A DNA stretch of 64,000 bases from Gleimia europaea (GTDB lineage: Bacteria; Actinomycetota; Actinomycetes; Actinomycetales; Actinomycetaceae): the NCBI GenBank assembly GCA_002871995.1, contig PNHW01000001.1:769517-833516 (forward strand). Reading direction: 5' to 3'. The position numbers and the translations under genes were made by a program. Under the pieces are notes generated by a model. It did not search any database and was not told the DNA's origin. It was given only the letters and a program-made list of their open reading frames with translations. This document shows positions 5,258 through 64,000 of this stretch, one piece after another (the first letter of the stretch is position 1; every line of letters starts with the position of its first letter).

Positions 5258-7351
5258 TTAGTTGCTCGCAGGGCGCACTGCGAGGACGTGTGCGGTACGG
5301 ATTGATGGCTCAAGGCGAACGTAGTTGTGCTCGCCCCACTGGTATTCAACGCCATCGAGCTCGTCTACAACGTTCAGCACGGGACCGTTCGGCCCGTAGT
5401 TGATAGTGGCACCGAGTTTTGACAGGTCGATGTCGACAGAACCTTCAACCGCGTTGTGCGGATCGAGGTTTACAACAACGATGACGGTGTCTTCTTCACC
5501 GTTGGGGCTGAACTTTGCGGGCACGTGCTTTGAGAAGCACAGCAGCCGGTCATCCGAGGTCTCATGCACCTGGATGCGGTGCAACTGCTGGAGGGCCGGG
5601 TGGCGGCCTCGTGCGGTGTTTAGCAAAGTGAGTAGGTTTTCGATGCCGTACTTGTTTGCATCTTCCCAGTCGCGGGGGCGGTATTCGTACTTCTCGTTGT
5701 CGATTTGCTCTTCAAACCCGGGCCGCTGCACGTTCTCTACGAACTCGTATCCGGAGTAGATGCCCCACGAGGGGGATGCTGTGGCTGCAAGAATTGCGCG
5801 TAGGGCGAAGATTGCGGCGCCTCCGGTGGTCATCTGCGGGGTGAGAATGTCGTGCGTGGTGGGCCAGAAGTTCGGGCGCATCACGTGGGCGGTGTCCTTG
5901 GAAACCTCTTCAAAGTATTCCAGCAACTCCTTCTTGGTGGTTCTCCAAGTGAAGTATGTGTAGGACTGGTGGTAGCCGAGGGCTCCAAGCGTGCGCATCA
6001 TGGCAGGCCGCGTGAAGGCTTCGGCAAGGAAGATCACCTCGGGGTGCTTTTCGTTAAATTCGGCTAGGAAACGTTGCCAGAAGCTCAGTGGCTTGGTGTG
6101 GGGGTTGTCTACGCGGAACAGGGTTACTCCGTGGTCGATCCACTTTTGAACAACGTCGCGAACCGCCCGGTAGATACCTTCTGGATCGTTGTCGAAGTTC
6201 AGTGGGTAAATGTCCTGGTACTTCTTGGGCGGGTTTTCCGCGTAGGCAATAGAGCCATCTGCACGTTCGCTAAACCATTCGGGGTGTTCCTTAACCCACG
6301 GGTGGTCGGGCGAGCATTGCAGAGCAAGGTCAAGCGCTACCTCCATGCCGTGTTCGCGCGCTTTGGAAACAAATTTGTCGAAGTCTTCAAACGTGCCAAG
6401 GTCGGGATGGATGGCATCATGTCCGCCTTCTGGAGCGCCAATTCCGTATGGCGATCCCGGGTCCATCGGACCGGCTTCGAGGGTGTTGTTGCGTCCCTTC
6501 CTAAAGGTGGTGCCGATGGGGTGGATAGGGGTCAGGTAGATTACGCTGAAGCCCATGTTCGCAATGCGGGGAATCTGCTGGGCTGCTCCTGCTAGCGTGC
6601 CGGACACCCAGTCGCCATTCTCGTCGCGGTGTGCGCCGTAGGAGCGAGGGAAGATCTCATACCAGGAGGAAAACAGCGCGGCCTTGCGGTCTACCTTCAG
6701 CGGGTAGGTGCGTGTGCGCGTCCACAGCTCCCGCAGTGGGAAGTGGCGGAACACGTTACGCACTCTCGACGATAGGCCTGCGGATAGCCGCGTTTGGGGC
6801 GAGGCGCTTTCGTCGCGTAGTAATTTGGCCGCCTCTAATAGCACTGCCTTGCCGGCCTTGTCCGGTCCTTTTTGTTTGCGGCTACCCTTGGGGCGGGGGC
6901 GTCCATCGGCGGCGCGTTCCATAAGGCGGGCGCCTTCTTCAAGCATGAGCTCAACGTCCGTGTCGGCCGCTACTTTGATAGCGGCGTCATGTGCCCAGGA
7001 GGTGTATGGGTCGGACCAGGTGTCGATGCGGAACTGCCACGCGCCGGGGCGGTCAGGCATGAGCCACGCCTCATAGCGGTCAAGGCCCGGAGCGATGTCA
7101 TGCATGTAGGCACGCATGTGCTCGTTGCCTTCCGGGTCTATCAGAACGGCTTCTACACCGAGCGCGTCGTGTCCTTCACGGAACACGGTTGCGCGCACGG
7201 GGAAGGATTCACCTTCCGTTGCTTTTGCCGGCCAAAGTCCCTGTTCGATTACCGGGAACACCTCGGTTGCAGGGATGCGCGTTATCCGCGCTCGAGGGGG
7301 AACTGGATTCTTCATGGTCGAAGTGGTGTTCTTCGCTTTGGCTACTGACAT
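5258..7351 (-). CDS. glgE: alpha-1,4-glucan:maltose-1-phosphate maltosyltransferase GlgE
   Basis: Transfers maltosyl units from maltose 1-phosphate to the non-reducing ends of alpha-glucan. The 697-residue length is typical. An N-terminal beta-sandwich domain (IPATEVFPVIEQGLWPAKAT) is followed by the GH13_3 barrel. LFRVDNPHTKP carries the nucleophile Asp near 413 and FLAEAFTRP the Glu near 441; both are GlgE-specific forms. The start has AAGGAG 8 nt upstream. trpS ends 42 bp upstream and treS starts 59 bp downstream. The set glgE-treS-mak-glgB makes the full trehalose-to-glucan route in one unit. Confidence 0.96.
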   Translation of the reverse strand: MSVAKAKNTTSTMKNPVPPRARITRIPATEVFPVIEQGLWPAKATEGESFPVRATVFREGHDALGVEAVLIDPEGNEHMRAYMHDIAPGLDRYEAWLMPDRPGAWQFRIDTWSDPYTSWAHDAAIKVAADTDVELMLEEGARLMERAADGRPRPKGSRKQKGPDKAGKAVLLEAAKLLRDESASPQTRLSAGLSSRVRNVFRHFPLRELWTRTRTYPLKVDRKAALFSSWYEIFPRSYGAHRDENGDWVSGTLAGAAQQIPRIANMGFSVIYLTPIHPIGTTFRKGRNNTLEAGPMDPGSPYGIGAPEGGHDAIHPDLGTFEDFDKFVSKAREHGMEVALDLALQCSPDHPWVKEHPEWFSERADGSIAYAENPPKKYQDIYPLNFDNDPEGIYRAVRDVVQKWIDHGVTLFRVDNPHTKPLSFWQRFLAEFNEKHPEVIFLAEAFTRPAMMRTLGALGYHQSYTYFTWRTTKKELLEYFEEVSKDTAHVMRPNFWPTTHDILTPQMTTGGAAIFALRAILAATASPSWGIYSGYEFVENVQRPGFEEQIDNEKYEYRPRDWEDANKYGIENLLTLLNTARGRHPALQQLHRIQVHETSDDRLLCFSKHVPAKFSPNGEEDTVIVVVNLDPHNAVEGSVDIDLSKLGATINYGPNGPVLNVVDELDGVEYQWGEHNYVRLEPSIRTAHVLAVRPASN

Positions 7352-16249: not shown

Positions 16250-17239
16250 GTGTTGAGGCAGGGTGAAAACAGGTTAGAAACAGCAACTACAACTTTTATG
16301 GGACTTAACTGGGATTCCGGTGAAAAGTTCTGGTGGCGAGGATTCGATTCAGAAAAGATTGCCACTGTGCTTGCTGTCTTGGCCTTTGTTTTTATTACTG
16401 CCGTGTGGGGCTCTACTTTCTTCCTGATTAAGGATCTTGTGAGCGCTGTTCCGCCGCTGGATTTTCTGGGAACGCGTTTCGTTATTGCCGCAGTTGTGGT
16501 ATTGGCGGTGCGCTATCGTGCTCTGAAAAAGGTCTCGAAGGATCTTTGGGGCAAGGGAATGTTGCTTGGAGCGATCTTCATGCTTGGCCAGTTGTTCCAG
16601 GTGGTTGGTCTGCAGTACACGGACGCCTCTGTGTCTGGATTTATTACCGGCATGTATGTGGTTCTTACTCCCGTCGTTTTGATGCTCATGTTTGGGGTGC
16701 AGATCCCTCGGGCAACGTGGGGGTGCATTGCGATCGCCACGGGTGGTTTGATGGTGCTGACGTTGGATGGTCTGGCGGTTGGCTTTGGCGAGCTTTTGAC
16801 GTTGCTCGGCGCTCTCATGTTCACCCTCCACATCGTGGTGTTAGGACACTGGACCAGTAAGGAGAACGCACTCGACCTGACGGTGATTCAGCTGATTAGT
16901 ATGGGCGCCCTCGGGTTCCTATTTGCTTTGCCCGGTGGTGTTACGTTGCCTTCTACTGCGGGACAGTGGGCTTCGCTGCTTTATATGGCGTTTGTGGCAA
17001 GCTTGCTTGCGTTGTTCTTGCAAACTTGGGCGCAGGCGCATATTAATCCAACCTCAACCGCGATTATCTTCACGTTGGAACCGTTGTTCGCCGCAGCCTT
17101 CGCGGTGGCGTTCGGCGGCGAAAGCCTGACCTTCCGGTTGATCTTGGGTGGGACCTTGATTGTTGCGGCTATGGCTGGAGCTGAACTATTGCCGCTACGC
17201 ATCCAGCGCAGACGCGAGGCTGCTCTGGTAGCGGCTTAA
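16250..17239 (+). CDS. EamA/DMT-family transporter
   Basis: 329-residue integral membrane protein with about ten hydrophobic segments and two internally similar halves. The first segment shows FITAVWGSTFFLIKD and the last half HINPTSTAIIFTLEPLFAAAF, both typical of drug/metabolite exporters. Family members move amino acids, nucleosides or drugs; the substrate here cannot be told. The start is GTG 16250 after AAGGGAAG; TTG 16253 and ATG 16298 are in-frame alternatives. It lies just inside the left tRNA-Lys copy. Confidence 0.85.
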   Translation: MLRQGENRLETATTTFMGLNWDSGEKFWWRGFDSEKIATVLAVLAFVFITAVWGSTFFLIKDLVSAVPPLDFLGTRFVIAAVVVLAVRYRALKKVSKDLWGKGMLLGAIFMLGQLFQVVGLQYTDASVSGFITGMYVVLTPVVLMLMFGVQIPRATWGCIAIATGGLMVLTLDGLAVGFGELLTLLGALMFTLHIVVLGHWTSKENALDLTVIQLISMGALGFLFALPGGVTLPSTAGQWASLLYMAFVASLLALFLQTWAQAHINPTSTAIIFTLEPLFAAAFAVAFGGESLTFRLILGGTLIVAAMAGAELLPLRIQRRREAALVAA

Positions 17240-52704: not shown

Positions 52705-52778
52705 GCGAGTGTAGCTCAATGGTAGAGCCTCTGCCTTCCAAGCAGATAGTGCGGGTTCGATTCCCGTCACTCGCTCCA
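52705..52778 (+). tRNA. tRNA-Gly(TCC)
   Basis: Acceptor GCGAGTG/CACTCGC, anticodon loop CTTCCAA (TCC) and T-loop TTCGATT. Genomically encoded CCA follows the discriminator at 52776-52778, which is not seen in the other tRNAs here. The prophage recombinases lie right after it. Confidence 0.93.
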
Positions 52779-52807
52779 CTTGGACGTCGAAAATGATAAG
52801 TAGGCGT

Positions 52808-52994: not shown

Positions 52995-54566
52995 CTAAAG
53001 CTGAACCCTCACTACCTCACCAACTCGGAATACGAACCGGATCGTATCTTCGCCTACGATGGCGTGGTCGATGAGTGCGCTCCATTGTGCGGGGTGAAAC
53101 TCGCTCACCGGTTCCCCTGTCAGATCATTCAGGGTTGTGGTGATGGCGGCGTGCTTGGCGGTGTTCGCTGCGATATCTGCCTCTAGGCTCGCTTTGCGTG
53201 CGAGCGTCTTACGGTAGGCAGTATCGAGCTCTGTGTAGTGGGCTTGGTAGGCGTCTTGGTCGAGCGCGCGTTGCTGGTTTTCCGCAATCAGTGCTTCGAT
53301 CTGCTCGGTCAGCTCCACGATTTTCGCCTGGCAGGCGGCGGCTTGTTCTTCCAAACGGCTCGTATCGAACATGTCGCCAAGCACCTGCGGTAGGTGGCTT
53401 TCGTACCGGTGGCGGGCGATCAGTTGGTTGAGCGCTTGCACGAAAGAATCCTTGATCTGCTCGTCTTTCACTGTCGCGCTGCTGCAAGGGTGCTGCCCTG
53501 CGTATTTGTGGTTGCATTGCCAGACTGTGTACTTGTATTTCGTGTTCGATGCCCACGTTTTACGCCCATACCACGCACCACACTGAAAGCATTTGAGCCG
53601 GGTGGAGAACAACCCGACTTTCGCTGATGATATGTTGCCATGTCTGGTGGAGAGTTCGTATTGCACCTGATCCCAGATATGCGGAGCAATAATCGGCTCG
53701 TGATTGCCTGTTACGTAGTATTGGGGTACTTCGCCTTCGTTGACCTTCATCTTTTTAGTAAGGAAATCGGTGGTGAACGTCTTTTGGAGAAGAGCGTCGC
53801 CTTTGTATTTTTCGTTGGATAGAATGGAGCGCACTGTCGATGTTGACCATACTTCTTTCCCGCGCGGGGTGAGAATCTTGCGGGCAGCGAGTTCGGTTTT
53901 AATCTCACTGATCGCCATCCCGTCAAGGAACAGCTGGTAGATCAGCCTGACGGTCGGTGCCTGGGTTTCGTCGATGACGAGACTGCCGTCCGCTCCTTTC
54001 TTATATCCGAGTAGTGATGCGTAGGGAACCATAATCTTCCCATCGGCAAAACGTTTCCTGTGTCCCCAGGTGACGTTTTCGGAGATCGAGCGGGATTCTT
54101 CTTGCGCCAGACTCGACATGATCGTGATGAGTAATTCGCCTTTGGTGTCAAAGGTGTAAATATTTTCCTTCTGAAAATAGACCTCGACGCCTGCGTCTTT
54201 GAGCTTGCGCACGGTGGTCAAGGAGTCGACGGTGTTGCGTGCGAACCGGGAGACGCTTTTGGTGAGGATGAGATCGATTTTGCCTGCCAGGGCGTCATCG
54301 ATCATGGTTTGGAATCCCTCACGGTGCTTCATAGAGGTGCCAGAGATACCTTCGTCGCAGTACATGCCCGCGAACTGCCAATCATTACGGGAATGAATGT
54401 AGGTGGTGTAGTAGTCGATCTGAGCCTCATACGAGGAGGTTTGTTCTTCCATCTCGGTAGAGACGCGAGCGTAGGCAGCGACCCGTCTGCGTGCCGGTGC
54501 GCCAGATGAGGCTGTGGCAGATCGAAGCTTCTTTGTTGCGGGTATCGCTGTGACGGTGCGGCTCAT
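52995..54566 (-). CDS. large serine recombinase 1
   Basis: 523 residues. The resolvase-type catalytic domain begins VAAYARVSTEMEEQTSSYEAQ with the nucleophile Ser in ARVS; RFARNTVDSLTTVRKLKD and the DGMAISEIKTELAARK recombinase domain follow. The zinc ribbon has CFQCGAWYGRKTW and CNHKYAGQHPC, and a long coiled coil follows (near 400-480), the hallmark of integrases that need synapsis control. Its ATG overlaps the stop of recombinase 2 by 4 bp (ATGA). It probably carries out phage integration and/or excision. Confidence 0.92.
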   Translation of the reverse strand: MSRTVTAIPATKKLRSATASSGAPARRRVAAYARVSTEMEEQTSSYEAQIDYYTTYIHSRNDWQFAGMYCDEGISGTSMKHREGFQTMIDDALAGKIDLILTKSVSRFARNTVDSLTTVRKLKDAGVEVYFQKENIYTFDTKGELLITIMSSLAQEESRSISENVTWGHRKRFADGKIMVPYASLLGYKKGADGSLVIDETQAPTVRLIYQLFLDGMAISEIKTELAARKILTPRGKEVWSTSTVRSILSNEKYKGDALLQKTFTTDFLTKKMKVNEGEVPQYYVTGNHEPIIAPHIWDQVQYELSTRHGNISSAKVGLFSTRLKCFQCGAWYGRKTWASNTKYKYTVWQCNHKYAGQHPCSSATVKDEQIKDSFVQALNQLIARHRYESHLPQVLGDMFDTSRLEEQAAACQAKIVELTEQIEALIAENQQRALDQDAYQAHYTELDTAYRKTLARKASLEADIAANTAKHAAITTTLNDLTGEPVSEFHPAQWSALIDHAIVGEDTIRFVFRVGEVVRVQL

Positions 54567-55813
54567 GCCAGCCTCCCCTCACTGGTTAACCCCACTGGTG
54601 CAATGGTTCCATCCGCGAGGTGGAAGGTGAGCTGATGCTCGAAGGCCTCAATCATCACGACCTGCTCAGCAACCGCAGCGGGGTCGAAACTTTGGGTGCC
54701 GAGCATGTCTGCGCAGGCTTGTTCGAGGAGTGTTTCGCGCAGGTTGTGCCCCCTACAGGGGTTGCCATTCCCGGTGCAGGCACTCCAGCACCGCCAAAAC
54801 TTATACGAGGTTCCAGACTTGTAGGTGCGGGTTTTGCGTTGATAGTTCTTCCCGCACGCCGCGCAGCAGATCCGCCCGGTGAATACGCCCGTGTTCTTCG
54901 ACGGGGTCGCAGCCGGGCCCACCTCACGCCTGTACGCGATTTCTGCTTGCACCGCGTCAAACATCGCCTCGTCAATGATTGGCGGGAGGGCTTGCTCGAC
55001 CCAGTAGCGTGGCAGCTCCCCGTTGTTGAGGGAGCATGTGGGTGCTTGGATTGTGGGGCGGTACATTTTCTGTAGCATTTGGCAGCCCTTGTAGCGCTCG
55101 TTTTCGAGCATGCGACGAAACACTGACCCGTAGAACCGTCCCCCTCCCCGAGAGCGTTTACCTTCAGCATTGAGCATCGTCGCGGTTTTCTCCGGGCTAA
55201 TCCCATCGAGATAATTGGCAAACAGTAAGCGCACAATCTTGGCTTCTTCGTCAATGATGGTGAACTCGCCGTCTGTCCAGTGGTAGCCATAGACAACGAA
55301 GGAGTTCGTGCCCCCGTTCTTGTATCGGTTGCGGATCGCCCATTTCACGTTGTGGGATAGCGAGCGGGATTCTTCCTGGGCGAACGACGCCAACAAAGTC
55401 AGCAACAGTTCCCCGTCAGCGCTAAGGGTGTCGATGCGTTCGCGTTCGAACCGTACGGCCACGCCAAGGTCTTTGAGCTCACGGACCGTAGCCAGTAGAT
55501 CGACAGTGTTGCGGGCCAGGCGTGAGATTGATTTACACAACACAATATCGACACCCCCGCGCCTGGCTGCGTCCATCAGGTCTGCCAGGCCTTGTCGGGA
55601 TTTTGTTGACGTGCCGGTGATACCCTCGTCGGTAAACACCCCGACATAGGCCCATCCGGGTGTGGACTGGATCAGGCGCGAGTAATACGACACTTGCGCC
55701 GATAGGGATGCTAACTGCTCTGTGCCGTTCGTTGAGACCCTCGCGTATGCCGCCACGTTGACCAGTTTTGGGGTCGGCGGCCGAACTGGTGTCACCACAC
55801 TGATGTGTGCCAC
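54563..55813 (-). CDS. large serine recombinase 2
   Basis: 416 residues from GTG 55813, which follows AAAGGAG; a longer reading to 55843 is less likely. AYARVSTNGTEQLASLSAQVS holds the catalytic Ser; ISRLARNTVDLLATVRELKD and a zinc ribbon (CCAACGKNYQRKT ... CWSACTGNGNPC) follow. It lacks the long coiled coil seen in recombinase 1. The two proteins are only distantly similar, so this is a pair of different enzymes, not a recent duplication. They may act as a heteromer. Confidence 0.9.
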   Translation of the reverse strand: MAHISVVTPVRPPTPKLVNVAAYARVSTNGTEQLASLSAQVSYYSRLIQSTPGWAYVGVFTDEGITGTSTKSRQGLADLMDAARRGGVDIVLCKSISRLARNTVDLLATVRELKDLGVAVRFERERIDTLSADGELLLTLLASFAQEESRSLSHNVKWAIRNRYKNGGTNSFVVYGYHWTDGEFTIIDEEAKIVRLLFANYLDGISPEKTATMLNAEGKRSRGGGRFYGSVFRRMLENERYKGCQMLQKMYRPTIQAPTCSLNNGELPRYWVEQALPPIIDEAMFDAVQAEIAYRREVGPAATPSKNTGVFTGRICCAACGKNYQRKTRTYKSGTSYKFWRCWSACTGNGNPCRGHNLRETLLEQACADMLGTQSFDPAAVAEQVVMIEAFEHQLTFHLADGTIAPVGLTSEGRLA

Positions 55814-55859
55814 GTTTTCTCCTTTCGCGTTAGGTCTATACACGCTCTAAAGGCGGTGT

Positions 55860-56069
55860 TTATCCAGTCGTTTTGCCCACAATCTGTGGTTGATAGATCG
55901 GGCTCCACGCCTGGAACAACAACCGGTGAGCACGCTGATGCTCTGCGGGTGTGAGCACGCCCCGACCTGCCAGCATGCTCAAGATGTGAGCGTCCGTGAT
56001 GAAGGCGAGTTCTCGGGCGAACACGTCAGGTTGGGCCAGTTGATCAACAGGAGCGGCGAGCGTGTTCAT
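55860..56069 (-). CDS. small SHOCT-like protein of the recombinase operon
   Basis: 69 residues from ATG 56069, which overlaps the stop of the zinc-finger gene (ATGA). The core LAFITDAHILSMLAGRGVLTPAEHQRAHRLLF resembles the short helical SHOCT motif (a GxLTxxEF-like turn). Such small genes recur beside serine recombinases in Gram-positive elements. It may be a recombination directionality factor; this is inference. Confidence 0.65.
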   Translation of the reverse strand: MNTLAAPVDQLAQPDVFARELAFITDAHILSMLAGRGVLTPAEHQRAHRLLFQAWSPIYQPQIVGKTTG

Positions 56070-56449
56070 GGTCGTCCGCCCCTGGTGCCGAAGCGAGCAC
56101 GTACATAGCAGGCGTGACAGCAAAACTTTTGACCTGGCTTGTCCACGATCGCGAAGCAGCGTCCGCAGTGCGTACAGGTCTGCTCGCGCATAGGCTCAGT
56201 TTTCTGTCGATGCCGCCAAGCTTTATGCCTGCAGGCGGGCGAGCAAAACCGAGCCCGAGCTGCTCCCTGTATAGGGTTGGCACACCACTGGCACACGTGC
56301 TCGACCATCACCGGAGCAGCGTCAAGGTTTCGGGTTGTGCAGTACGAGCGGATCTGGTCACGAGTCAGGGCGCAAAACTCGGCAATCGCTTTATACCCCC
56401 AGCCCGCCGTGCGCAGGTTACGGATACGTTGTTCATCAAGATCATTCAC
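56066..56449 (-). CDS. HTH and double zinc-finger protein of the recombinase operon
   Basis: 127 residues from GTG 56449 (AAGGGAG upstream). The N-terminus LDEQRIRNLRTAGWGYKAIA-EFCALTRDQIRSYC looks like a sigma-type helix-turn-helix. Two treble-clef fingers follow: CQWCANPIQ...FCSPACRHKAW and CTHCGRCFA...FCCHACYVRARFG. It heads the four-gene coupled operon that ends with the two recombinases, so DNA binding for control or direction of recombination is plausible. Confidence 0.7.
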   Translation of the reverse strand: MNDLDEQRIRNLRTAGWGYKAIAEFCALTRDQIRSYCTTRNLDAAPVMVEHVCQWCANPIQGAARARFCSPACRHKAWRHRQKTEPMREQTCTHCGRCFAIVDKPGQKFCCHACYVRARFGTRGGRP

Positions 56450-56517
56450 AGTGGGGTCACTCCCTTCACCCCACTGCCGACGAACCCCCGTTTGTTAAAT
56501 CCATCCATGAAACGACG

Positions 56518-56575
56518 AAAAGCCCCGCCACCACCGGCTCCCCGAGGATTGGGAAGTCACAGTGGTGACGGGGCT
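56518..56575 (-). terminator. phage late-operon terminator
   Basis: AGCCCCG-C-CACCAC (56521-56534) pairs with GTGGTG-A-CGGGGCT (56562-56575) with one mismatch; TTTT follows on the minus strand. It lies upstream of the recombinase operon and downstream of the lysis genes, but the tet(W) cassette now separates it from the endolysin gene. Of the gap 56450-56781, this hairpin, the two terminators below and the cassette edge are all that I see. Confidence 0.7.
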
Positions 56576-56612
56576 CGTATGAGCAGATAGATAACTGCCC
56601 GAAAAAAGGACA

Positions 56613-56651
56613 TAAAAAAATCCCTCCAAATTTAAAAACAAATTCAGAGGG
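56613..56651 (-). terminator. distal terminator of the tet(W) cassette
   Basis: On the minus strand CCCTC...GAGGG-type stem (56622-56627 with 56647-56651, with an A/T-rich inner stem) followed by a run of seven T residues. Confidence 0.65.
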
Positions 56652-56733
56652 TAATTTAGGGTATAACAAAATAACCCACCCGAATATCGTTTTTTTTATT
56701 TGGTGAGTTTGTTCTTTCAAATACGAAACAAAA

Positions 56734-56776
56734 AGAGCCGATGATTCGTGAATTGTTCCACAATTTCATCGGCTCT
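56734..56776 (-). terminator. terminator after the Cys-rich KTR gene
   Basis: AGAGCCGATGA (56734-56744) pairs with TCATCGGCTCT (56766-56776); TTTTTG follows on the minus strand. Confidence 0.8.
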
Positions 56777-56781
56777 GCGTC

Positions 56782-56955
56782 TTAAGCGTCTGGCTCTTTG
56801 ATGACAGTTATCTTCAAGTTGTCAACTTTAATCAATCTTTCTTGTCTGCATTTTGGACAATAAAGGGGATAATTCTCCAAAACAGTGTCCTTCCTAATTT
56901 TATTACGGGTTTTGCTCCCACAAACAGGACACAATATCCATTCGCATTTCATCAT
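56782..56955 (-). CDS. cysteine-rich KTR protein (small tet-associated gene)
   Basis: 57 residues: it begins with MMKCEWILCPVCGSKTR, then NKIRKDTVLENYPLYCPKCR, and ends VIKEPDA. Two CxxC pairs suggest a zinc ribbon. The CPxCGSKTR motif defines the 'cysteine-rich KTR' proteins commonly found downstream of ribosomal-protection tet genes in Firmicutes. It begins 51 bp after tet(W). Function unknown. Two adjacent ATG codons could start it. Confidence 0.85.
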   Translation of the reverse strand: MMKCEWILCPVCGSKTRNKIRKDTVLENYPLYCPKCRQERLIKVDNLKITVIKEPDA

Positions 56956-57006
56956 AATTAGTCTCTAATCCTTTCAAATCTCATTTTATATGACTTTTGC
57001 AAGCTG

Positions 57007-58926
57007 TTAAGCTAACTTGTGGAACATATGCCGAACCTTATCTATACGGCTATTCGGGCGGCGGGGTTGGCAAATAAATTTACCAATAGCTGGATGGTAT
57101 CCTTTTAACTCTGTCAAGCAGACTCCCTGCCCATTTGTGAAATAAGTTAAATCGTTCCTGTATTCTTGAATACATCTAGCAGGGATTTCTCCTTTCAGAA
57201 TGACCTCGTCATTCTTTATCTGAGTACTTACAATATCTGCACAATACCTTGGAGCATCATGATACGCCCGTGAGAGATATTCCTGCGGTGCATAAATTTC
57301 AAAGTGGAGATATGGCTCTAATAGTTCTGTCCCTGCTTTTTTTAAAGCCTGCTCCAATACGATAGGGGAAAGCAGCCGAAAGTCTGCGGGGGTACTTACA
57401 GGACTATAATACAATCCATATTCAAAACAGATTTTACAGTCTGTCACTTTCCATCCATACAGCCCCTGCTCGCAGCCATAAAGAACCCCCTCCATAACCG
57501 CATTTTGGAACGATTGATTTAAATATCCAAGTGAAACTCTGCTTTCATACTGCACTCCGCTTCCAATAGGGAGCGGCTCTATGGACAACCCGACAGAAGC
57601 CCAGAAAGGATTTGGCGGGACTTCTATGTGGATGGTATATTCTGCTTTTCTAAGCGGTCTTTCCATATATATAACAGTAGGCTCTTTTATTTCTGCCTCC
57701 ACATGATATTTTTCCTCAAGGATGGCACAAATGACTTCCATTTGCACATTCCCCAAAAAAGAAAGTATAATCTCATGCGTTGTAGTATCCACATAATATT
57801 TTAAAAGAGGGTCGCCATCTGAAATTTCTGTAAGTGCCCCAAGCAATATTTCCCGCTGTTCAGATTTCTTTACTGCAATCGTTGTTTGGAGCATAGGGAG
57901 AGGATTTTCAATAAATTTTCTCTGCGGCAACAGTATTTCGTTCCCCAAAATACTGTTTAGCTGCAAAACATCATTTGGTAAAATTACAATATCACCAGAG
58001 CAGGCTGTATCGGATGAATATAATTCACCGTTTGTCGGAACACACATCTCTGTGATTTTTATTTTCTCTTTTTCAGATATTCTAATAACATCCCTCAAAT
58101 GCAATGTTCCGCTATATATACGCACATAAACAAAACGCCGCCTTTTCTCTGAATATTCAATCTTAAAAACCTGCCCGCATAGTTCAGATTGACCTTCAGG
58201 CGTTGATGAATAAAATTTACTGGCAATTACTTCTATAAGCTGCCGAATCCCCAGATTGTTTTTAGCGCTTCCGTGATAAACGGGAAATAACGTTCCGTTT
58301 TGGAATCTCCTGTTTTCTTCCTGTTCCAGTTCTGACATTTTAAACGGTTTCCCTGACATATATTTCTCTAATAGTTCATCGTTTCCCATAATTACCGCAT
58401 CCCACTGTTCCATATCGTCATTGTCCGTTACATTTATATGGGGATGCTGCCCAACCTTTTGCTTCACTATAATTTCCGAAGAAAGCTTTGCTTTCATTTC
58501 CCGATATACCATTGGCAAATCAATCCCCTCTTGGTCAATTTTATTGATGAAAAAAATTGTCGGAATCTTCATTATCTGTAGTGCATGAAACAGTATACGG
58601 GTCTGTGCCTGTATGCCATCCTTTGCAGAAACTAATAATACTGCTCCGTCTAATACGGATAAAGAACGGTATACTTCCGCCAAAAAATCCATATGGCCTG
58701 GCGTATCTATAATGTTGACTTTTACATCCTCCCACTGAAAAGATGTCACTGCTGTCTGGATAGTGATTCCCCTTTGACGCTCCAAATTCATTGTATCTGT
58801 CCTTGTTGTGCCTTCATCTACGCTCCCTAGTTCTGCAATTGCACCACTGGTATACAATAAACTTTCCGTTAATGTTGTCTTTCCTGCGTCAACGTGAGCC
58901 AGAATGCCTAAGTTAATTATTTTCAT
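57007..58926 (-). CDS. tet(W): tetracycline resistance ribosomal protection protein Tet(W)
   Basis: EF-G-like GTPase that releases tetracycline from the 30S subunit. 639 residues, the full Tet(W) length and N-terminus ([20 protein letters not shown]). G1 is AHVDAGKT (10-17), G2 includes GITIQTAV, G3 DTPGHMDF near 75, G4 NKID near 128. Domains II-V are complete. AGGAGG precedes the ATG. Codon use and GC are unlike the surrounding phage and host genes, which indicates recent transfer from a Firmicutes-type source. Nothing is broken, so the host should be tetracycline resistant if it is expressed. Confidence 0.97.
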
Positions 58927-58969
58927 GTGATTTTCCTCCTATCAACACCCAAAAAAGGGCATAAAAATA

Positions 58970-58999
58970 CCCAGTGATAAATACTCCTATCACTGGGTA
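58970..58999 (-). promoter_or_regulatory. attenuator hairpin in the tet(W) leader
   Basis: TACCCAGTGATA pairs with TATCACTGGGTA across 6 nt and is followed on the minus strand by TTTTTATG, as in the attenuator of tet(M)-type leaders. It lies between the leader peptide and tet(W). Confidence 0.8.
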
Positions 59000-59150
59000 A
59001 ATAACTCCAATAGCCCCAAAACACTTATATGTTTTCGGGCATATAAAATTACATGATAAAAGTATTCTTAAACTGGGTACAAAAAACTAAGCCCCATATT
59101 AAAAGTGAAACGGGACTGCTACTTTTTGTTCCCACTATCAAATTGACAGT

Positions 59151-59174
59151 TTATTTAAGAATACCTTGCCGCAT
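59151..59174 (-). CDS. tet(W) leader peptide
   Basis: Seven codons (MRQGILK) then TAA, with AAGGAG 9 nt upstream. The codons GGT ATT CTT AAA overlap a sequence that can pair with the later stretch TTTAAGAATAC near 59060. In the known tet(M) model, translation of such a leader in tetracycline disrupts the terminator so that transcription proceeds into the resistance gene. Confidence 0.75.
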   Translation of the reverse strand: MRQGILK

Positions 59175-59206
59175 ATTTATTAACTCCTTGTATAATACTG
59201 AATCTA

Positions 59207-59235
59207 ATTATATTCCTTAACCCTTTATTTGTCAA
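59207..59235 (-). promoter_or_regulatory. tet(W) promoter
   Basis: Consensus sigma-70 promoter: TTGACA (59230-59235) and TATAAT (59207-59212) with exactly 17 bp between, about 33 nt before the leader peptide start. It is the only perfect -35/-10 pair I see in the window. Confidence 0.9.
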
Positions 59236-59253
59236 GCTGACAAACTAAAGCAG

Positions 59254-59279
59254 AAAAAGCGGCAGGATTTCCCCCTGCC
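59254..59279 (-). terminator. terminator of tnpV
   Basis: GGCAGG...CCTGCC stem followed by TTTTT on the minus strand, between the tnpV stop and the tet(W) promoter. It separates the two transcripts. Confidence 0.75.
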
Positions 59280-59292
59280 ACTAATCATCTGT

Positions 59293-59667
59293 TTATGCAA
59301 AAATAATTTCCTTTTCCACAATCTCCCTCGCACAAGCCCTTATGTTATTGAGGCATCCTGTCCATTCTAAGGCGTTTTCTGCCTTTAGCTGTTCCGTTAT
59401 GCCCTGTGCCTGTTTCATACCCTCTATGAGCCTTTCAAAGCGTTCCTGTGCCTGTCTGTTGATGTCGGCAAGGTAGGCGTTTAGCCTGCCGCTTGTAAGA
59501 AGATTGGTGTATGTAACTTTACGGTACTGTTTTAGATAATCTAAATGCCGTTGCCCCCAGATGCCTATTGCCTGTTCTTCTTCGGCGGGTACAGTTAAGC
59601 ACGGTATCAAATAATCCCCTTGCCTTTCGTATTTGCCGCCCAGTTCCTCAAATAATGATTTTGCCAT
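59293..59667 (-). CDS. TnpV-family transposon-encoded protein
   Basis: 124 residues, highly helical and polar: EELGGKYERQGDYLIPCLTV ... IGIWGQRHLDYLKQYRKVTYTNLL ... FERLIEGMKQAQGITEQLKAEN. This matches the TnpV proteins of Firmicutes transposons, whose function is undefined. It is the upstream neighbour of tet(W) and shares its low GC. No transposase accompanies it. Confidence 0.8.
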   Translation of the reverse strand: MAKSLFEELGGKYERQGDYLIPCLTVPAEEEQAIGIWGQRHLDYLKQYRKVTYTNLLTSGRLNAYLADINRQAQERFERLIEGMKQAQGITEQLKAENALEWTGCLNNIRACAREIVEKEIIFA

Positions 59668-59750
59668 TGTCTGTTACCTCCACATTCTTTTTTATTTTGA
59701 ATGTCCGCAAAATCCGTCCTACATCAGTCGCTCCGACGTGGCGCGGATGT

Positions 59751-60563
59751 TTAGTAGCCGAGCTTGGCATTCACGCGCGCCTGAACAGCGGCGTAGAGGT
59801 TGCCCAAGCGGCGCTTACGCTCCTCACCATTGCCATAGTCGCCACGGATCACGGCGTCGGCAAGCGCGTCGATGTTGGGCCCTGCTGGCTTCGTCGGCGT
59901 GTTGCCAGAGAGCTTCTCGTTCACTCGCTGCTGGACAGCCGCGTAGTTGGCTCCGAGGCGGAGCTTACGCTCCTCCCCGTTCCCGTAATCACCGCGAATG
60001 ACAGCGTCAGCCAATGCGTCGATGTTCGGTGCTGCAGGAGCGGGTGCTGGTGCGCTACCGCTCATCTGGTCATACCAAGACTGTGCGCGGGACATGTAGG
60101 CGGCATGCTGGGAACCAGCAAGAGAAGCCGGGCAAGCCGTGGCAGAGAAGTCTTTGTGCCCGAACACGTTCTTGCCCCACTGGGGTCGGCCAAGGCCGTA
60201 GAACTTGCAGATCGCGGCGACGAGGTGTGCTCCGTTATCGAGGCACGCCTCCGACACAGCCCACGGGCTGGAGCTCACGTCGGCGTGTTCGATGCCGATA
60301 CTGGTGGTGTTGGCTGCAAAGTTGCCTGCATGCCAGGCGGTATCGCGATCCCATACGAGCTGGCCAATTGTGCCGTCGGTTTGGACTTGGTAGTGGGCCG
60401 ATGCAGGACGGGTTTGCCACACGTCGTAACAGCCCCTAATGGTGAGGTTTCCGGCGTTGTGGTGAATGATGACCTTATCGATCCGCCTGCCGTTGCGGCC
60501 GGGTGTGTAGTGTGTGTTCATGATGAGGTCGATGTCGGCCTCAAGCGTGTTCCAATTCTTCAT
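59751..60563 (-). CDS. phage endolysin: N-acetylmuramoyl-L-alanine amidase with two Cpl-7-like repeats
   Basis: 270 residues. The Amidase_2 domain (1-~165) has zinc ligands in IIHHNAG and FGHKDFSATACPAS. A Pro/Ala linker leads to two near-identical CW_7 wall-binding repeats (IDALADAVIRGDYGNGEERK, near 185 and 230), each ending in VNxKL. It cuts peptidoglycan at lysis. Its ATG overlaps the holin stop by 4 bp, giving a standard holin-endolysin cassette. It is complete, and the cassette begins only after its stop. Confidence 0.92.
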   Translation of the reverse strand: MKNWNTLEADIDLIMNTHYTPGRNGRRIDKVIIHHNAGNLTIRGCYDVWQTRPASAHYQVQTDGTIGQLVWDRDTAWHAGNFAANTTSIGIEHADVSSSPWAVSEACLDNGAHLVAAICKFYGLGRPQWGKNVFGHKDFSATACPASLAGSQHAAYMSRAQSWYDQMSGSAPAPAPAAPNIDALADAVIRGDYGNGEERKLRLGANYAAVQQRVNEKLSGNTPTKPAGPNIDALADAVIRGDYGNGEERKRRLGNLYAAVQARVNAKLGY

Positions 60564-61021
60564 GACTGGTTCTCCTTTGTGTTTTCAGTGGTCGTTTCGG
60601 TCAGTGAGGGCCTGGTTTCGGCGCGGTTGGCGATCGCATCGAGCGCCCCACGCATCTGGGATGGGACAGGCAGTCCCAAGCGGGTGGCGTTCTCCACCAG
60701 CGAGATGCCTTCGTTGGACAGGTAGAAGAAAATGACCGCCGCGCGTAGCACGCCGGGTGCTCCGAGAATATGGACGTCGATGAGGTGGGCCAGGCCGACG
60801 AGAGTGAAGATGAGGATCTTTCGGCTGATACCCCTAAAACCGACGGATGAGCTGAGGCGGCGCTCGTTGATGGCGGCCAGCACCCCGGTGATGTAGTCGG
60901 CGATAGCGAAGACGATCAGCGCATAGACGAGGCCGTCGAGGCCTCCAAGATAAGCGGCGAGCCAGGCACCAATACCAGCGATCCCGGTTTGGATGGCGTG
61001 CCAGATGGCGTGAAGAGACAT
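60560..61021 (-). CDS. phage holin
   Basis: 153 residues from ATG 61021 (AAGGA upstream; a longer start at 61045 exists). Three hydrophobic segments (YALIVFAIADYITGVLAA, ILIFTLVGLAHLIDVHI, LRAAVIFFYLSNEGISLVEN) match the phage holin family exemplified by phi-LC3/TcdE proteins (ADYITG motif). It permits the endolysin to reach the wall. The C-terminus is polar. Confidence 0.88.
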   Translation of the reverse strand: MSLHAIWHAIQTGIAGIGAWLAAYLGGLDGLVYALIVFAIADYITGVLAAINERRLSSSVGFRGISRKILIFTLVGLAHLIDVHILGAPGVLRAAVIFFYLSNEGISLVENATRLGLPVPSQMRGALDAIANRAETRPSLTETTTENTKENQS

Positions 61022-61103
61022 GGGAATGATTCCTTTCGTGGGCATAAAAAATTGCCCACACCCATCTGGGGTGAAGGCATCTAAAAATTGGTGTAGTACT
61101 GGG

Positions 61104-61325
61104 CTACATGGTCGGGTCGGTGAGGACCTCGAGAATTGGCAGGCTCAAGTCGAAGGACGCCGCCTTGGGCGCTGGGAGTTCTTGGGCTTCGATGGTCTCT
61201 GCTGGTGGTGAGGGCGTGGCATCGGATTCGACCGGGACGATGGGTAGCTGCACTTCTTCGCTAGGCGTTGACTCATTGCCGTTGGGCTCAATCAGCTCCG
61301 TGTTCGTTTCTTCCTCGGTGGTCAT
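61104..61325 (-). CDS. small acidic phage protein of unknown function
   Basis: 73 residues, rich in Glu, Pro and Thr (EEETNTELIEPNGNESTPSEEV), ending LSLPILEVLTDPTM. No known domain. The ATG overlaps the upstream gene's stop by 4 bp, so it is likely a real translated gene of the late operon. Confidence 0.6.
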   Translation of the reverse strand: MTTEEETNTELIEPNGNESTPSEEVQLPIVPVESDATPSPPAETIEAQELPAPKAASFDLSLPILEVLTDPTM

Positions 61326-61744
61326 TGGCCACCCTTGGTGATCGCGTCGTAAAGGACGTCATAGGCCTCGGCCGCTTCGCCAGAAAGCTCACCCTCATAG
61401 CCATCAAGAAATGCTTTCACGTCCTTGTCGTGGCCGTCGTAGGTTGGCCCCGATACTTCAGCGATCGACGCGAGCAGGGCTTGACGGGCTTCGAGGAATT
61501 CACTGGCCTTGTCAGGGTCGGCGAGGACGAACGTGCCATCGTCGGCGAACACTGGGCGACCCTGATCGTCAAGTGTTGCGAATTGGGCGACGAGGTCGTA
61601 TTCATCTTCCCCGAATCGCGCAATCGCTTCCTTCACTAGCGTGAGGAGTTTCGAGCGGGCACGGGACTGCGCCGCCTTGAGCGGCATATTGGTGAGTAGG
61701 TCTGCGATGGGTTGCAAATACTGGTTTGCGAGCATGATCTTCAT
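61322..61744 (-). CDS. phage protein, possibly DUF1617-like
   Basis: 140 residues, mostly helical: KIMLANQYLQPIADLLTNMP then LKAAQSRARSKLLTLVKEAI, with an FADDGTFVLAD turn in the middle. Small proteins of this type lie between tail-fibre and holin genes in Gram-positive siphophages. The family match is a guess from the N-terminal pattern. Confidence 0.6.
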   Translation of the reverse strand: MKIMLANQYLQPIADLLTNMPLKAAQSRARSKLLTLVKEAIARFGEDEYDLVAQFATLDDQGRPVFADDGTFVLADPDKASEFLEARQALLASIAEVSGPTYDGHDKDVKAFLDGYEGELSGEAAEAYDVLYDAITKGGQ

Positions 61745-61760
61745 CAGTGTTTCCTTTTAC

Positions 61761-64000
61761 TTATGCGAGGTTGGTGGACATGGCCGACAGGCCAGTGTTG
61801 GAGAAGTACCGCCAGGTGATGTTCGACCCGGTTCCGGAGATGGATGTGATCCAGCCTTGATTGAGTAAGCTCAGGATTGCGTTCATTCGCGACATCAAAT
61901 CCTTGGTGCGGTCGAATAGGCGGGTCATGTTGTAATACGACCCATTGGTGACCACCATCAGGTCGTAGGTGTGAAACACGATCTTCGACAGCCCGCTTTG
62001 CCCCACCCAGCCCGAATAGGTTCCCTTGCCCGTCAGCGTGCAGTCCTGCAAGGTCACATATCGTGAGCCCGTCGTGTAGAACTTGTAGCCACCTGTTCGC
62101 AGATCGGAGCCGAGGTGGATACCTGCCTGCCCGTAAAACAGGCCTTTCGGGTCAAGGGTGAGACAGGTGTAGTAGGTGCCGCCGTCTGCCTTCTGGTAGG
62201 TCCAGGCGACGTAGTCGCCTTTGTAAGCAAGTTGGTTGACGATGCCTTGCACATTCGGCTTGTCCTTATGAGCCCGCCGAGCAAACTCACCGATATAGCG
62301 GGTTCCGTACCAAAACTGCATCCCAGCGCTCGTGATCTTGCCTTCCAGGGTGGTCCCGTCATACCAGGCGATCTGCGTGGGCGTAATGCGGATCGATTGC
62401 GTCCAGTCTGCCAGGCCTACTTGGATGGCGTTGGTCGCGAGCTTGTCGGCCGTAATCGACCGCGCCCCAATCCGAGCGGCGTTCAGATACCCGGTGGTGA
62501 TCTTCCCAGCATCCAGCGAAGCAATCTTGGCCGATGTGACCGCAGCGTCCTTGATCATCGTGGACTGGATAAAACCGTTAGCGATCGTCAACTTGTCCGA
62601 GGTAATCGAACCGGCAGCGATCCGTGCCGCCGACAAGGTACCGGTCGTAATCTTCGACGCCGATAGACTGCCAACCTTTGCGTCCGTGATCGCGGCGTTG
62701 GCAATCATTGCGGTGGTGATGAACCCACTCGCGATGGTCAGCTTGTCGGAGGTAATACTTCCCGTGGCGATACGGTCAGCCGCCAAGAACCCAGCCGTGA
62801 TTTTGGCTGCCGACAGTGAACTGATTTTCGCGTCGGTGATAGCGGCATCAGCGATGTGTGCGGTGCCGATGGCGGCATCTGCGATGTGTGCTTGGCTGAT
62901 CGCTTTCGGCCCGATCATCGCGGCACCGACCGGTGTTTGTTCCCATTGGTTGTTGGTGAGGAGATATTGGCGGGCGATCACTCCGTCTACGCGCACTTGC
63001 CACAGCGCACCCTCCGGTCGGCCAGCCGCATCCGCTACGCTAGGATCAACAACGGCAACCGTGAGCCGCCCATCCGAGGTTACCGCGATGTCGTGGGCAT
63101 CCTGCGCCAACTGGGTAGCACCAGCGGCTGCGGTCTTGGCCTGGTCAATCTCCACCTGCGCCGACGCCATCTGAGTGGCGACAGCATCGGCGGCGGTTTG
63201 TGCATCCTGGGCCGCAAGCAGGGCGTGGCCGACTTGTGTGCGGACGGCATCGAGTTCCGCACCGAGCTGGGCATGATTCAGATCAGTAGCGAGTGCCACC
63301 CAGCCGGGCTGCCCGGTATCAGTGAGCTGGTAGATCCAGATCTCGACCTGTTCGCCATTTTGCCGGAACCACGTGTCACCCAGCTTGGCCTTGGCGGGCT
63401 GGATGCTGCCGTAGTGGTTGGTGTTCTTCCCATCCGCTGAAGCGAGTGCGAATCCTGCCGCATCCGACGCAGCCACCGCCGTATTGACGGCGGTTTTGAC
63501 CTGCCGGGTGACAGACGTGAACTTCCGAGCAGTAGAACCCAGCTCAACGGAGATGTACTGGAGCGTGAGCGGGTTGTATTCGTAAGCGACCACCCGTGCC
63601 GTGAGCGCAATCCCAAGATCAGCGTGACGGACGGTCACGGTGTCGCCAATTTCGACGGTTTCCAGGCGTGCAAGATCAGCGTATTCACGGGTGGTGGCGA
63701 GATCGACGAACCGCACCTTATACGAGCCCGACGGCTCATCGACATGTCTTGCGCTGAATTCTGCTGCAGCTAGTCGGCGCAGCTCAGAGTGGGCTTGGTC
63801 GAGTGGGAGTTCACCCTCACGCGGGTTGTCTTTGTCGGTGATGGCTTTGACTTGTCCGTAGCGGATGACGCGGATACGCGGCACCACATAATCACCCAAC
63901 TTCGGACTATCGACATACAGTTCAGGCAGGAGTAGGCCGTCGTATCCGACTGGCAGAATCCGCGTCACCACCGTCGAAAAATCAATGGATGATTCGAAGC
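61761..64000 (-). CDS. phage tail-tip/fibre protein (N-terminus beyond the window)
   Basis: At least 746 residues; the frame is open to the right edge, upstream of GTG 63971. The visible start (FSTVVTRILPVGYDGLLLPE) is typical of the tail-associated endopeptidase family of siphophages. The middle (residues ~230-300) is Ala/Gln-rich coiled coil, followed by three imperfect repeats with the pattern ITDAKISSLSAAKITxG...AARIA-GSITSDKLTIA, likely a trimeric fibre shaft. The C-terminus (WYDGTTLEGKITSAGMQFWY then a Gly/Tyr-rich end) could contact the host. Tail length and receptor are unknown. Confidence 0.85.
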   Translation of the reverse strand, partial: FESSIDFSTVVTRILPVGYDGLLLPELYVDSPKLGDYVVPRIRVIRYGQVKAITDKDNPREGELPLDQAHSELRRLAAAEFSARHVDEPSGSYKVRFVDLATTREYADLARLETVEIGDTVTVRHADLGIALTARVVAYEYNPLTLQYISVELGSTARKFTSVTRQVKTAVNTAVAASDAAGFALASADGKNTNHYGSIQPAKAKLGDTWFRQNGEQVEIWIYQLTDTGQPGWVALATDLNHAQLGAELDAVRTQVGHALLAAQDAQTAADAVATQMASAQVEIDQAKTAAAGATQLAQDAHDIAVTSDGRLTVAVVDPSVADAAGRPEGALWQVRVDGVIARQYLLTNNQWEQTPVGAAMIGPKAISQAHIADAAIGTAHIADAAITDAKISSLSAAKITAGFLAADRIATGSITSDKLTIASGFITTAMIANAAITDAKVGSLSASKITTGTLSAARIAAGSITSDKLTIANGFIQSTMIKDAAVTSAKIASLDAGKITTGYLNAARIGARSITADKLATNAIQVGLADWTQSIRITPTQIAWYDGTTLEGKITSAGMQFWYGTRYIGEFARRAHKDKPNVQGIVNQLAYKGDYVAWTYQKADGGTYYTCLTLDPKGLFYGQAGIHLGSDLRTGGYKFYTTGSRYVTLQDCTLTGKGTYSGWVGQSGLSKIVFHTYDLMVVTNGSYYNMTRLFDRTKDLMSRMNAILSLLNQGWITSISGTGSNITWRYFSNTGLSAMSTNLA

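What the first reader, a model, noticed from the sequence alone, without database searches (positions are those of the whole stretch)
52995..60563. tet(W) cassette inserted in a prophage between the lysis genes and the recombinase module
The window shows phage endolysin-holin genes, then low-GC tnpV-tet(W)-KTR, then a phage-type terminator and a dual-recombinase operon. The insertion breaks no phage gene, so the phage could still be functional and move tetracycline resistance. A tet(W)-carrying phage is known in Streptococcus suis (phi SsUD.1), but this arrangement in an actinobacterial host is noteworthy.
Basis: partly seen in the sequence, partly recalled or inferred. Interest (0 to 1): 0.75.

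Follow-up and report, generated by a model that had tools for sequence, protein, structure and literature searches.

The report
tet(O) prophage shared across actinobacterial genera
A bacterial virus integrated in this genome carries a tetracycline-resistance gene, tet(O) rather than tet(W), and nearly the same resistance-carrying virus sits in two Mobiluncus species, which suggests that it moves between different genera of bacteria.

Summary
The arrangement is real, but the gene is tet(O), not tet(W). A 3,147-bp, 39% GC TnpV-tet(O)-KTR segment (56577-59723) sits in a prophage between the amidase stop codon and the late-operon terminator. Three natural relatives show the empty site (GGGGC-TC-AGTC); the insert has TC at both junctions and no phage base is lost. 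The prophage runs about 56.4 kb from tRNA-Gly to beyond the window and is largely colinear with the circular corynephage PhiCATYP2070I, which lacks the cassette; 37 of 39 PhiCATYP proteins sought are present without stop codons. Mobiluncus mulieris ATCC 35243 and M. curtisii ATCC 35241 carry the same junction, with one mismatch in 10,784 phage bases each, in a tRNA-Gly and a tRNA-Thr gene. Their 16S is 88% identical to the window host's, a different genus. Best reading: one insertion, then cross-genus movement of a recombining phage lineage. The cassette is the right end of a known tet(O) mobilizable element (serine integrase, MobV relaxase, TnpV, 11-bp TTTTGCGGACA repeat), cut at an internal TC; insertion by a serine recombinase with a TC/GA core is favoured. 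Known kind (phi-m46.1 precedent), new vehicle. Phage activity and resistance are not shown.

The parts
52705..52778 (+). tRNA-Gly(TCC), integration site; TC of attL core at 52775-52776
52783..52799 (+). phage att arm GACGTCGAAAATGATAA at attL; attR TC at window coordinate 109213, outside the window
52995..54566 (-). large serine recombinase 1 (523 aa)
   Evidence: Pfam Resolvase, Recombinase, Zn_ribbon_recom; 100% in both Mobiluncus loci
54563..55843 (-). large serine recombinase 2 (426 aa)
   Evidence: same three Pfam domains
55860..56069 (-). small phage ORF, 69 aa, no Pfam match
   Evidence: 79.7% to PhiCATYP2070I homologue
56066..56449 (-). small phage ORF, 127 aa, no Pfam match
   Evidence: inside the stretch aligned with PhiCATYP2070I
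56520..56576 (-). terminator hairpin of the late operon, now downstream of the cassette
   Evidence: fold, z -6.1
56575..56576 (.). TC at left junction
   Evidence: empty site against filled site
56577..59723 (-). inserted cassette, 3,147 bp
   Evidence: empty sites in L094, L096, L240
56782..56955 (-). cysteine-rich KTR protein, 57 aa
   Evidence: Pfam PF14205
57007..58926 (-). tet(O), 639 aa
59293..59667 (-). TnpV, 124 aa
   Evidence: Pfam PF14198
59702..59712 (.). right-end copy of the 11-bp repeat (TGTCCGCAAAA, reverse complement of TTTTGCGGACA)
   Evidence: repeat described in PMC9815147
59724..59725 (.). TC at right junction
59751..60563 (-). amidase endolysin with CW_7 repeats
60560..61045 (-). 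holin
61104..64000 (-). small ORF, DUF1617 protein and tail spike gene (the last runs on to about 64592)

Best explanation
A temperate actinobacterial phage of the PhiCATYP2070I type (about 56.4 kb here, two large serine recombinases) integrates at the 3' ends of tRNA-Gly and tRNA-Thr genes, apparently through a TC/GA core. An ancestor of this lineage received a 3.15-kb TnpV-tet(O)-KTR segment between the endolysin gene and the late-operon terminator. The segment is the right end of an 11-kb serine-integrase mobilizable element, with the element's true end on the right and an internal TC on the left; most likely it went in as a circle through a serine recombinase with a TC/GA core. The phage then carried tet(O) between hosts of at least two genera while exchanging other parts with related phages. 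Shown: extent of the prophage, empty and filled sites, open genes, the shared junction in three host species, att sites. Inferred: the recombinase that made the insertion, transfer in phage particles, resistance of the host.
For: Colinearity with a circular corynephage; 37 of 39 proteins sought without stops; natural empty sites in L094, L096 and L240; same junction in M. mulieris and M. curtisii with one mismatch in 10,784 phage bases each although 16S is 88% identical and host DNA beside the prophage is 67% or not alignable; attL at tRNA ends; right end and 11-bp repeat of the parent element; 15 of 17 distinct right flanks and 7 of 11 non-natural left junctions at TC.
Against: No induction, particle or excision data. 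ImmA and HTH homologues of PhiCATYP2070I were not found, and about 10 kb at the right end plus three inner stretches do not align with it. Prophages of the three hosts are mosaic, so module exchange as well as whole-phage transfer occurred. Two right flanks read TT and four left junctions are not TC. The cassette has no left copy of the 11-bp repeat and no recombinase of its own. In 396 genomes drawn from the order only the window's own has the exact left junction, and viral contigs have none.
Confidence: 0.75

Rival explanations
1. The phage's own recombinases, which also appear to use a TC/GA core, captured the cassette at a cryptic site, rather than the integrase of the parent mobilizable element.
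For: M. curtisii attL and attR share only TC at the core, and TC is central in the attP of PhiCATYP2070I. The insertion target in the phage is also TC.
Against: The same right end followed by TC occurs in plasmids and chromosomal loci where no such phage was seen at the junction, and the parent element has its own DUF4368 serine recombinase.
Confidence: 0.15
2. The insertion is an illegitimate end-joining event with 2-bp TC microhomology at both junctions; no site-specific enzyme was involved.
For: The left end lies inside the parent element and has no 11-bp repeat. Some other left junctions are not at TC.
Against: TC at both junctions and in the empty site; 7 of 11 left and 15 of 17 right junctions at TC against a background of 0.083. 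The 7 of 11 falls to 4 of 8 (p 0.0025) if three placed by eye are dropped, and look-alike right flanks merged give 11 of 13.
Confidence: 0.25
3. The prophage is defective; tet(O) spread among these hosts by exchange of chromosomal or prophage DNA through other routes, and the phage is only a landing pad.
For: The prophages are mosaic: window and M. mulieris share about 33 kb at 99.3-100% but mostly 82-98% beyond it, and M. curtisii differs also at about 67-73.5 kb. No functional data.
Against: M. curtisii has the prophage in a tRNA-Thr gene and the other two in tRNA-Gly, each with an exact attL; little host DNA beside it is shared; 37 of 39 proteins sought are open.
Confidence: 0.2

Closest known systems
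Streptococcus phage phi-m46.1 and S. suis relatives with tet(O)
   Same: tet(O)-TnpV unit 98.7% identical, beside a pair of serine recombinases downstream of lysis genes.
   Different: In phi-m46.1 the unit follows the recombinases instead of preceding them, and its left end is another TC. Recombinases are about 38-46% identical. Integration is in rum, not tRNA (PMC4288039, passages). Streptococcal host; transduction shown there, not here.
Corynephage PhiCATYP2070I (NZ_CP008945)
   Same: Colinear, mostly 81-89% DNA identity in aligned stretches, same att arms, lysis genes followed by both recombinases.
   Different: No cassette; 48.1 kb; other early and defence genes.
Class 6 integrative mobilizable elements with tet(O) in snf2 or ppi of S. 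suis
   Same: TnpV, tet(O) and the right-end 11-bp repeat; a full copy in L205 has the serine recombinase and Mob_Pre relaxase.
   Different: The window cassette lacks integrase, relaxase and left end.
phi-SsUD.1 with tet(W)
   Same: A tetracycline ribosomal-protection gene on a prophage.
   Different: Tet protein 67.1% identical; in the megablast search only part of the tet gene matched.

Membership tests
tet(W) | sequence identity to Tet(W) | tested here: not met
   67.1% to Tet(W) of phi-SsUD.1, 97.97% to Tet(O) of phi-m46.1
PhiCATYP2070I-type temperate phage | colinear structural, replication and lysis genes | tested here: met
PhiCATYP2070I-type temperate phage | matching att arms at both ends | tested here: met
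PhiCATYP2070I-type temperate phage | excision, particles, infection | not testable with these tools
   no bench data
phi-m46.1-like resistance phages | tet(O) unit beside lysis genes and recombinase pair | tested here: met
phi-m46.1-like resistance phages | integration at the 3' end of rum | tested here: not met
   tRNA-Gly here
Class 6 IME | serine integrase and MobV relaxase genes inside the element | tested here: not met
   insert holds KTR, tet(O) and TnpV among its larger ORFs
Class 6 IME | 11-bp repeat at both ends | tested here: not met
   right end only
CIME (decayed IME that keeps both att ends) | both att ends kept | tested here: not met
   left end is an internal TC of the parent
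TC/GA-core serine-recombinase insertion (mechanism, not family) | one target dinucleotide found at both junctions with no loss | tested here: met
TC/GA-core serine-recombinase insertion (mechanism, not family) | circular intermediate with a single TC | not testable with these tools
   needs PCR

The most novel reading that the evidence does not exclude
A phage family whose paired TC/GA-core serine recombinases accept the 3' ends of several tRNA genes acts as a cross-genus vehicle among Actinomycetaceae, and its own recombinases can also capture GA-bounded resistance cassettes at the foot of the late-operon terminator, where the cargo is read together with the lysis genes.
Probability: 0.15. 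Interest if true: 0.8.

Novelty: new variant of a known kind. Interest (0 to 1): 0.6.

Why it matters
Resistance genes on apparently intact temperate phages are thought to be uncommon (recalled), and the experimentally shown tet(O) case that I read about is streptococcal (PMC4288039). Here one insertion event is found in prophages of two genera, in tRNA-Gly and tRNA-Thr genes, with one mismatch in 10.8 kb: comparative evidence that a phage moved resistance across genera. It could account for tet(O) in Mobiluncus (that tet(O) was reported there is recalled, not looked up). The TC/GA junction pattern gives a simple test of how pieces of the tet(O) mobilizable element come to be bounded in plasmids, phages and chromosomes.

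Tried and rejected
tet(W): rejected by protein and DNA identity.

Two unrelated phage fragments: rejected by colinearity and by relatives with the empty site.

Tn916 origin of the left flank: my notes call the left extension Tn916-like because of sigma-factor and KTR genes. The full copy in L205 shows these genes inside the mobilizable element itself, so I dropped it.

A Bacillota host for the close relatives L020, L023 and L024 (titled Tissierella sp. Marseille-P2918): dropped, because G218, whose contig length equals that of record FQLW01000006, is placed in the window's own family.

IS-type transposition with a random 2-bp target duplication: not favoured, because the dinucleotide beside the right end is TC in 15 of 17 distinct flanks.

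Empty site for phi-m46.1: its left flank alone was searched; all 11 records found also appear with a tet gene, so no empty site was found.

Wholly different tRNA genes in all three carriers: not so. Window and M. mulieris both use tRNA-Gly(TCC) next to tRNA-Pro(TGG); only M. curtisii uses tRNA-Thr(CGT).

Host species: not named. 16S was compared with 11 genomes behind named loci; 9 matched, at 83-88%.

Literature: searches used 'tet o', which cannot match the printed tet(O), so their zero results mean nothing. Searches gave lists; no listed title or abstract start, and no passage that I read in PMC9294530, PMC9854608 or PMC10160630, reports a tet(O) phage in Actinomycetaceae. PMC10160630 reports tetO in Winkia neuii. 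This is no proof of absence from print.
Full report
What is there. On the minus strand lie tail genes, a holin (60560-61045), an amidase (59751-60563), TnpV (59293-59667), a ribosomal-protection gene (57007-58926), KTR (56782-56955), a terminator hairpin (56520-56576), two small phage ORFs and two large serine recombinases (54563-55843, 52995-54566). The resistance gene is tet(O): 97.97% protein identity to Tet(O) of phi-m46.1 against 67.1% to Tet(W) of phi-SsUD.1, and 99.9% DNA identity of the unit to tet(O) units of Enterococcus faecalis plasmids. The insert has 39.4% GC, the phage beside it 56.3% and 59.2%.

One phage, not two fragments. The window is part of contig C1 of a 2.07-Mb genome. 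With the DNA beyond the window, 52783-109216 is colinear with the circular record PhiCATYP2070I of Corynebacterium atypicum; long aligned stretches are 81-89% identical, some short ones 69-80%, and about 10 kb at the right end plus three inner stretches do not align. The genome announcement calls that record a circular corynephage (PMC4153484, one passage read). I sought 39 of its 51 annotated proteins; 37 are found with no stop in the aligned part, two (ImmA, HTH) are not found. The 12 not sought are small ORFs, type I restriction genes, a hydrolase and an antitoxin.

Att sites. attL is at the 3' end of tRNA-Gly(TCC), with TC at 52775-52776; the TC of attR is at 109213. The attP of PhiCATYP2070I has two inverted 17-bp arms 14 bp apart with TC in the middle. 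In M. curtisii attL and attR share only TC there. In one search, 11 distinct sites have a tRNA-like end before the att arm; ARAGORN calls a tRNA-Gly or tRNA-Thr gene in 10 of the 11 (not L016). One of the 11 (L003) is a second site in the window's own genome, and in L014, L015, L018 and L019 the site lies 0.7-6 kb from the recombinase.

Empty and filled sites. Viral contigs L094 and L096 and a prophage of genome G218 (L240) have the uninterrupted GTGACGGGGC-TC-AGTC sequence. The window has TC at 56575-56576, then 3,147 bp, then TC at 59724-59725. Other relatives (L001, L014-L017, L093, L095) are empty too but differ around the site. Read in the direction of transcription the cassette comes after the amidase stop codon and before the terminator. 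Among 160 loci examined (PhiCATYP2070I and 159 recombinase relatives), 53 passed a filter for an amidase and a second-recombinase hit on the plus strand, many with weak amidase matches; only L021 and L029 of the 160 hold tet. Closest relatives without it have 741-784 bases between amidase and recombinase hits, the carriers 3,911.

The same junction in Mobiluncus. L021 is M. mulieris ATCC 35243 and L029 M. curtisii subsp. curtisii ATCC 35241. Each has one mismatch, the same one at 57742, in 10,784 phage bases. In M. mulieris the prophage is in tRNA-Gly(TCC) beside tRNA-Pro(TGG), the same pair as in the window; in M. curtisii it is in tRNA-Thr(CGT). The M. mulieris host DNA beside it is 67% identical over 260 bp and M. 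curtisii gave no match, so common descent of the locus does not explain the identity of the phage. Window 16S matches 9 of 11 named genomes at 83-88%, both Mobiluncus at 88%. In a family search 20 of 213 genomes match the query; three have the insert with phage flanks (G000, G142, G140) and G218, G214, G217 have the unit at 99-100% without them. G142 and G140 look like the two Mobiluncus genomes by contig number and coordinates and are placed in another genus than the window. G218 holds both an empty relative of the phage and the unit (three mismatches in 3,151 bases) on one contig. Viral contig L201/L236 is identical to the M. curtisii phage where compared and is no independent case. In 396 genomes drawn from the order the left junction is in the window's own only, and viral contigs have no exact match.

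A mosaic lineage. Per kb, window and M. mulieris prophages are 99.9-100% identical from 53.5 to 85.5 kb, 99.3% in the next kb, and then mostly 82-98%; M. curtisii is 97.9% at 63.5 kb, does not align or is 86-94% at about 67-73.5 kb, and otherwise follows M. mulieris. Exchange between prophages therefore contributes.

Origin of the cassette. Its right end, TGTCCGCAAAATCCGTCCTACA then TC, recurs widely. Of 17 distinct right flanks 15 begin TC and two TT (L012, L221) (repeats of the window and phi-m46.1 junctions dropped). Five of the 15 look like one another, probably homologous snf2 sites, so they are not independent; merged, the count is 11 of 13. A nearly full copy of the parent in L205 has a 629-aa serine recombinase with DUF4368, a Mob_Pre relaxase, ParB, AAA and sigma-like proteins, KTR, tet(O) and TnpV. 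Its left end starts TC AGTCGGTCATTTTTTGCGGACA, with different flanks in L205 and L211. The 11-bp repeat TTTTGCGGACA with TnpV is described for cargo in snf2 of S. suis, including Class 6 mobilizable elements (PMC9815147, passages), and tet(O) elements in snf2 or ppi are in PMC7168690 (passages). The window cassette keeps only the right end. Of 11 distinct non-natural left junctions, seven are at TC (window, L237, L238, L208, L239, L011, L012) and four are not (L009, where an IS6 gene is close; L010; L210; L209). L238, L208 and L239 were placed by eye; without them it is 4 of 8. L204's internal deletion and loci that begin inside the unit were left out. Against a TC frequency of 0.083 the probabilities are 6.7e-6 for 7 of 11, 0.0025 for 4 of 8 and 7e-15 for 15 of 17, treating junctions as independent, which is only roughly true. 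This favours a serine recombinase with a TC/GA core; microhomology is not excluded.

How it probably works. Tet(O) protects ribosomes from tetracycline (established for the family; NCBIfam match). The cassette is on the strand of the lysis genes, so late transcription should pass through it to the phage terminator, while a lysogen would need the gene's own promoter (inferred). Spread would be by infection and site-specific integration at tRNA 3' ends that leaves the tRNA sequence whole. Everything after the sequence comparison is inference.

Known or new. tet(O) phages are known in streptococci, and phi-m46.1 moved between species in the laboratory (PMC4288039, passages). New here are an actinobacterial phage as vehicle, one insertion shared across two genera, and natural empty sites that show its exact borders. 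I rate it a new variant of a known kind.

Noticed in passing
L003 1501-1756 (G000 C5 about 16806-17060) and L007 from about 18730 (window coordinate 109213 on): A second tRNA-Gly (CCC) in the same genome is followed by a phage-like att arm, and the DNA right of attR also resembles that arm; these may be scars of earlier integrations.
   Followed up: partly
L007 2801-3745 and 10774-18547 (window coordinates about 93284-94228 and 101257-109030): The prophage carries an AbiD-like gene, a type III restriction-modification pair and a HamA-HamB (Hachiman) pair near its right end.
   Followed up: partly
   Followed up: partly
L213 (Ligilactobacillus salivarius plasmid) 5692-6147: TnpV with the same right end stands beside tet(M) and tet(L) instead of tet(O), with a bacitracin-resistance operon on the other side.
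   Followed up: no
L006 13228-15717 (window coordinates about 83711-86200): An 829-aa protein with an Rv2525c-like glycoside-hydrolase domain and a peptidoglycan-binding domain lies in a stretch of about 4 kb that does not align with PhiCATYP2070I.
   Followed up: no
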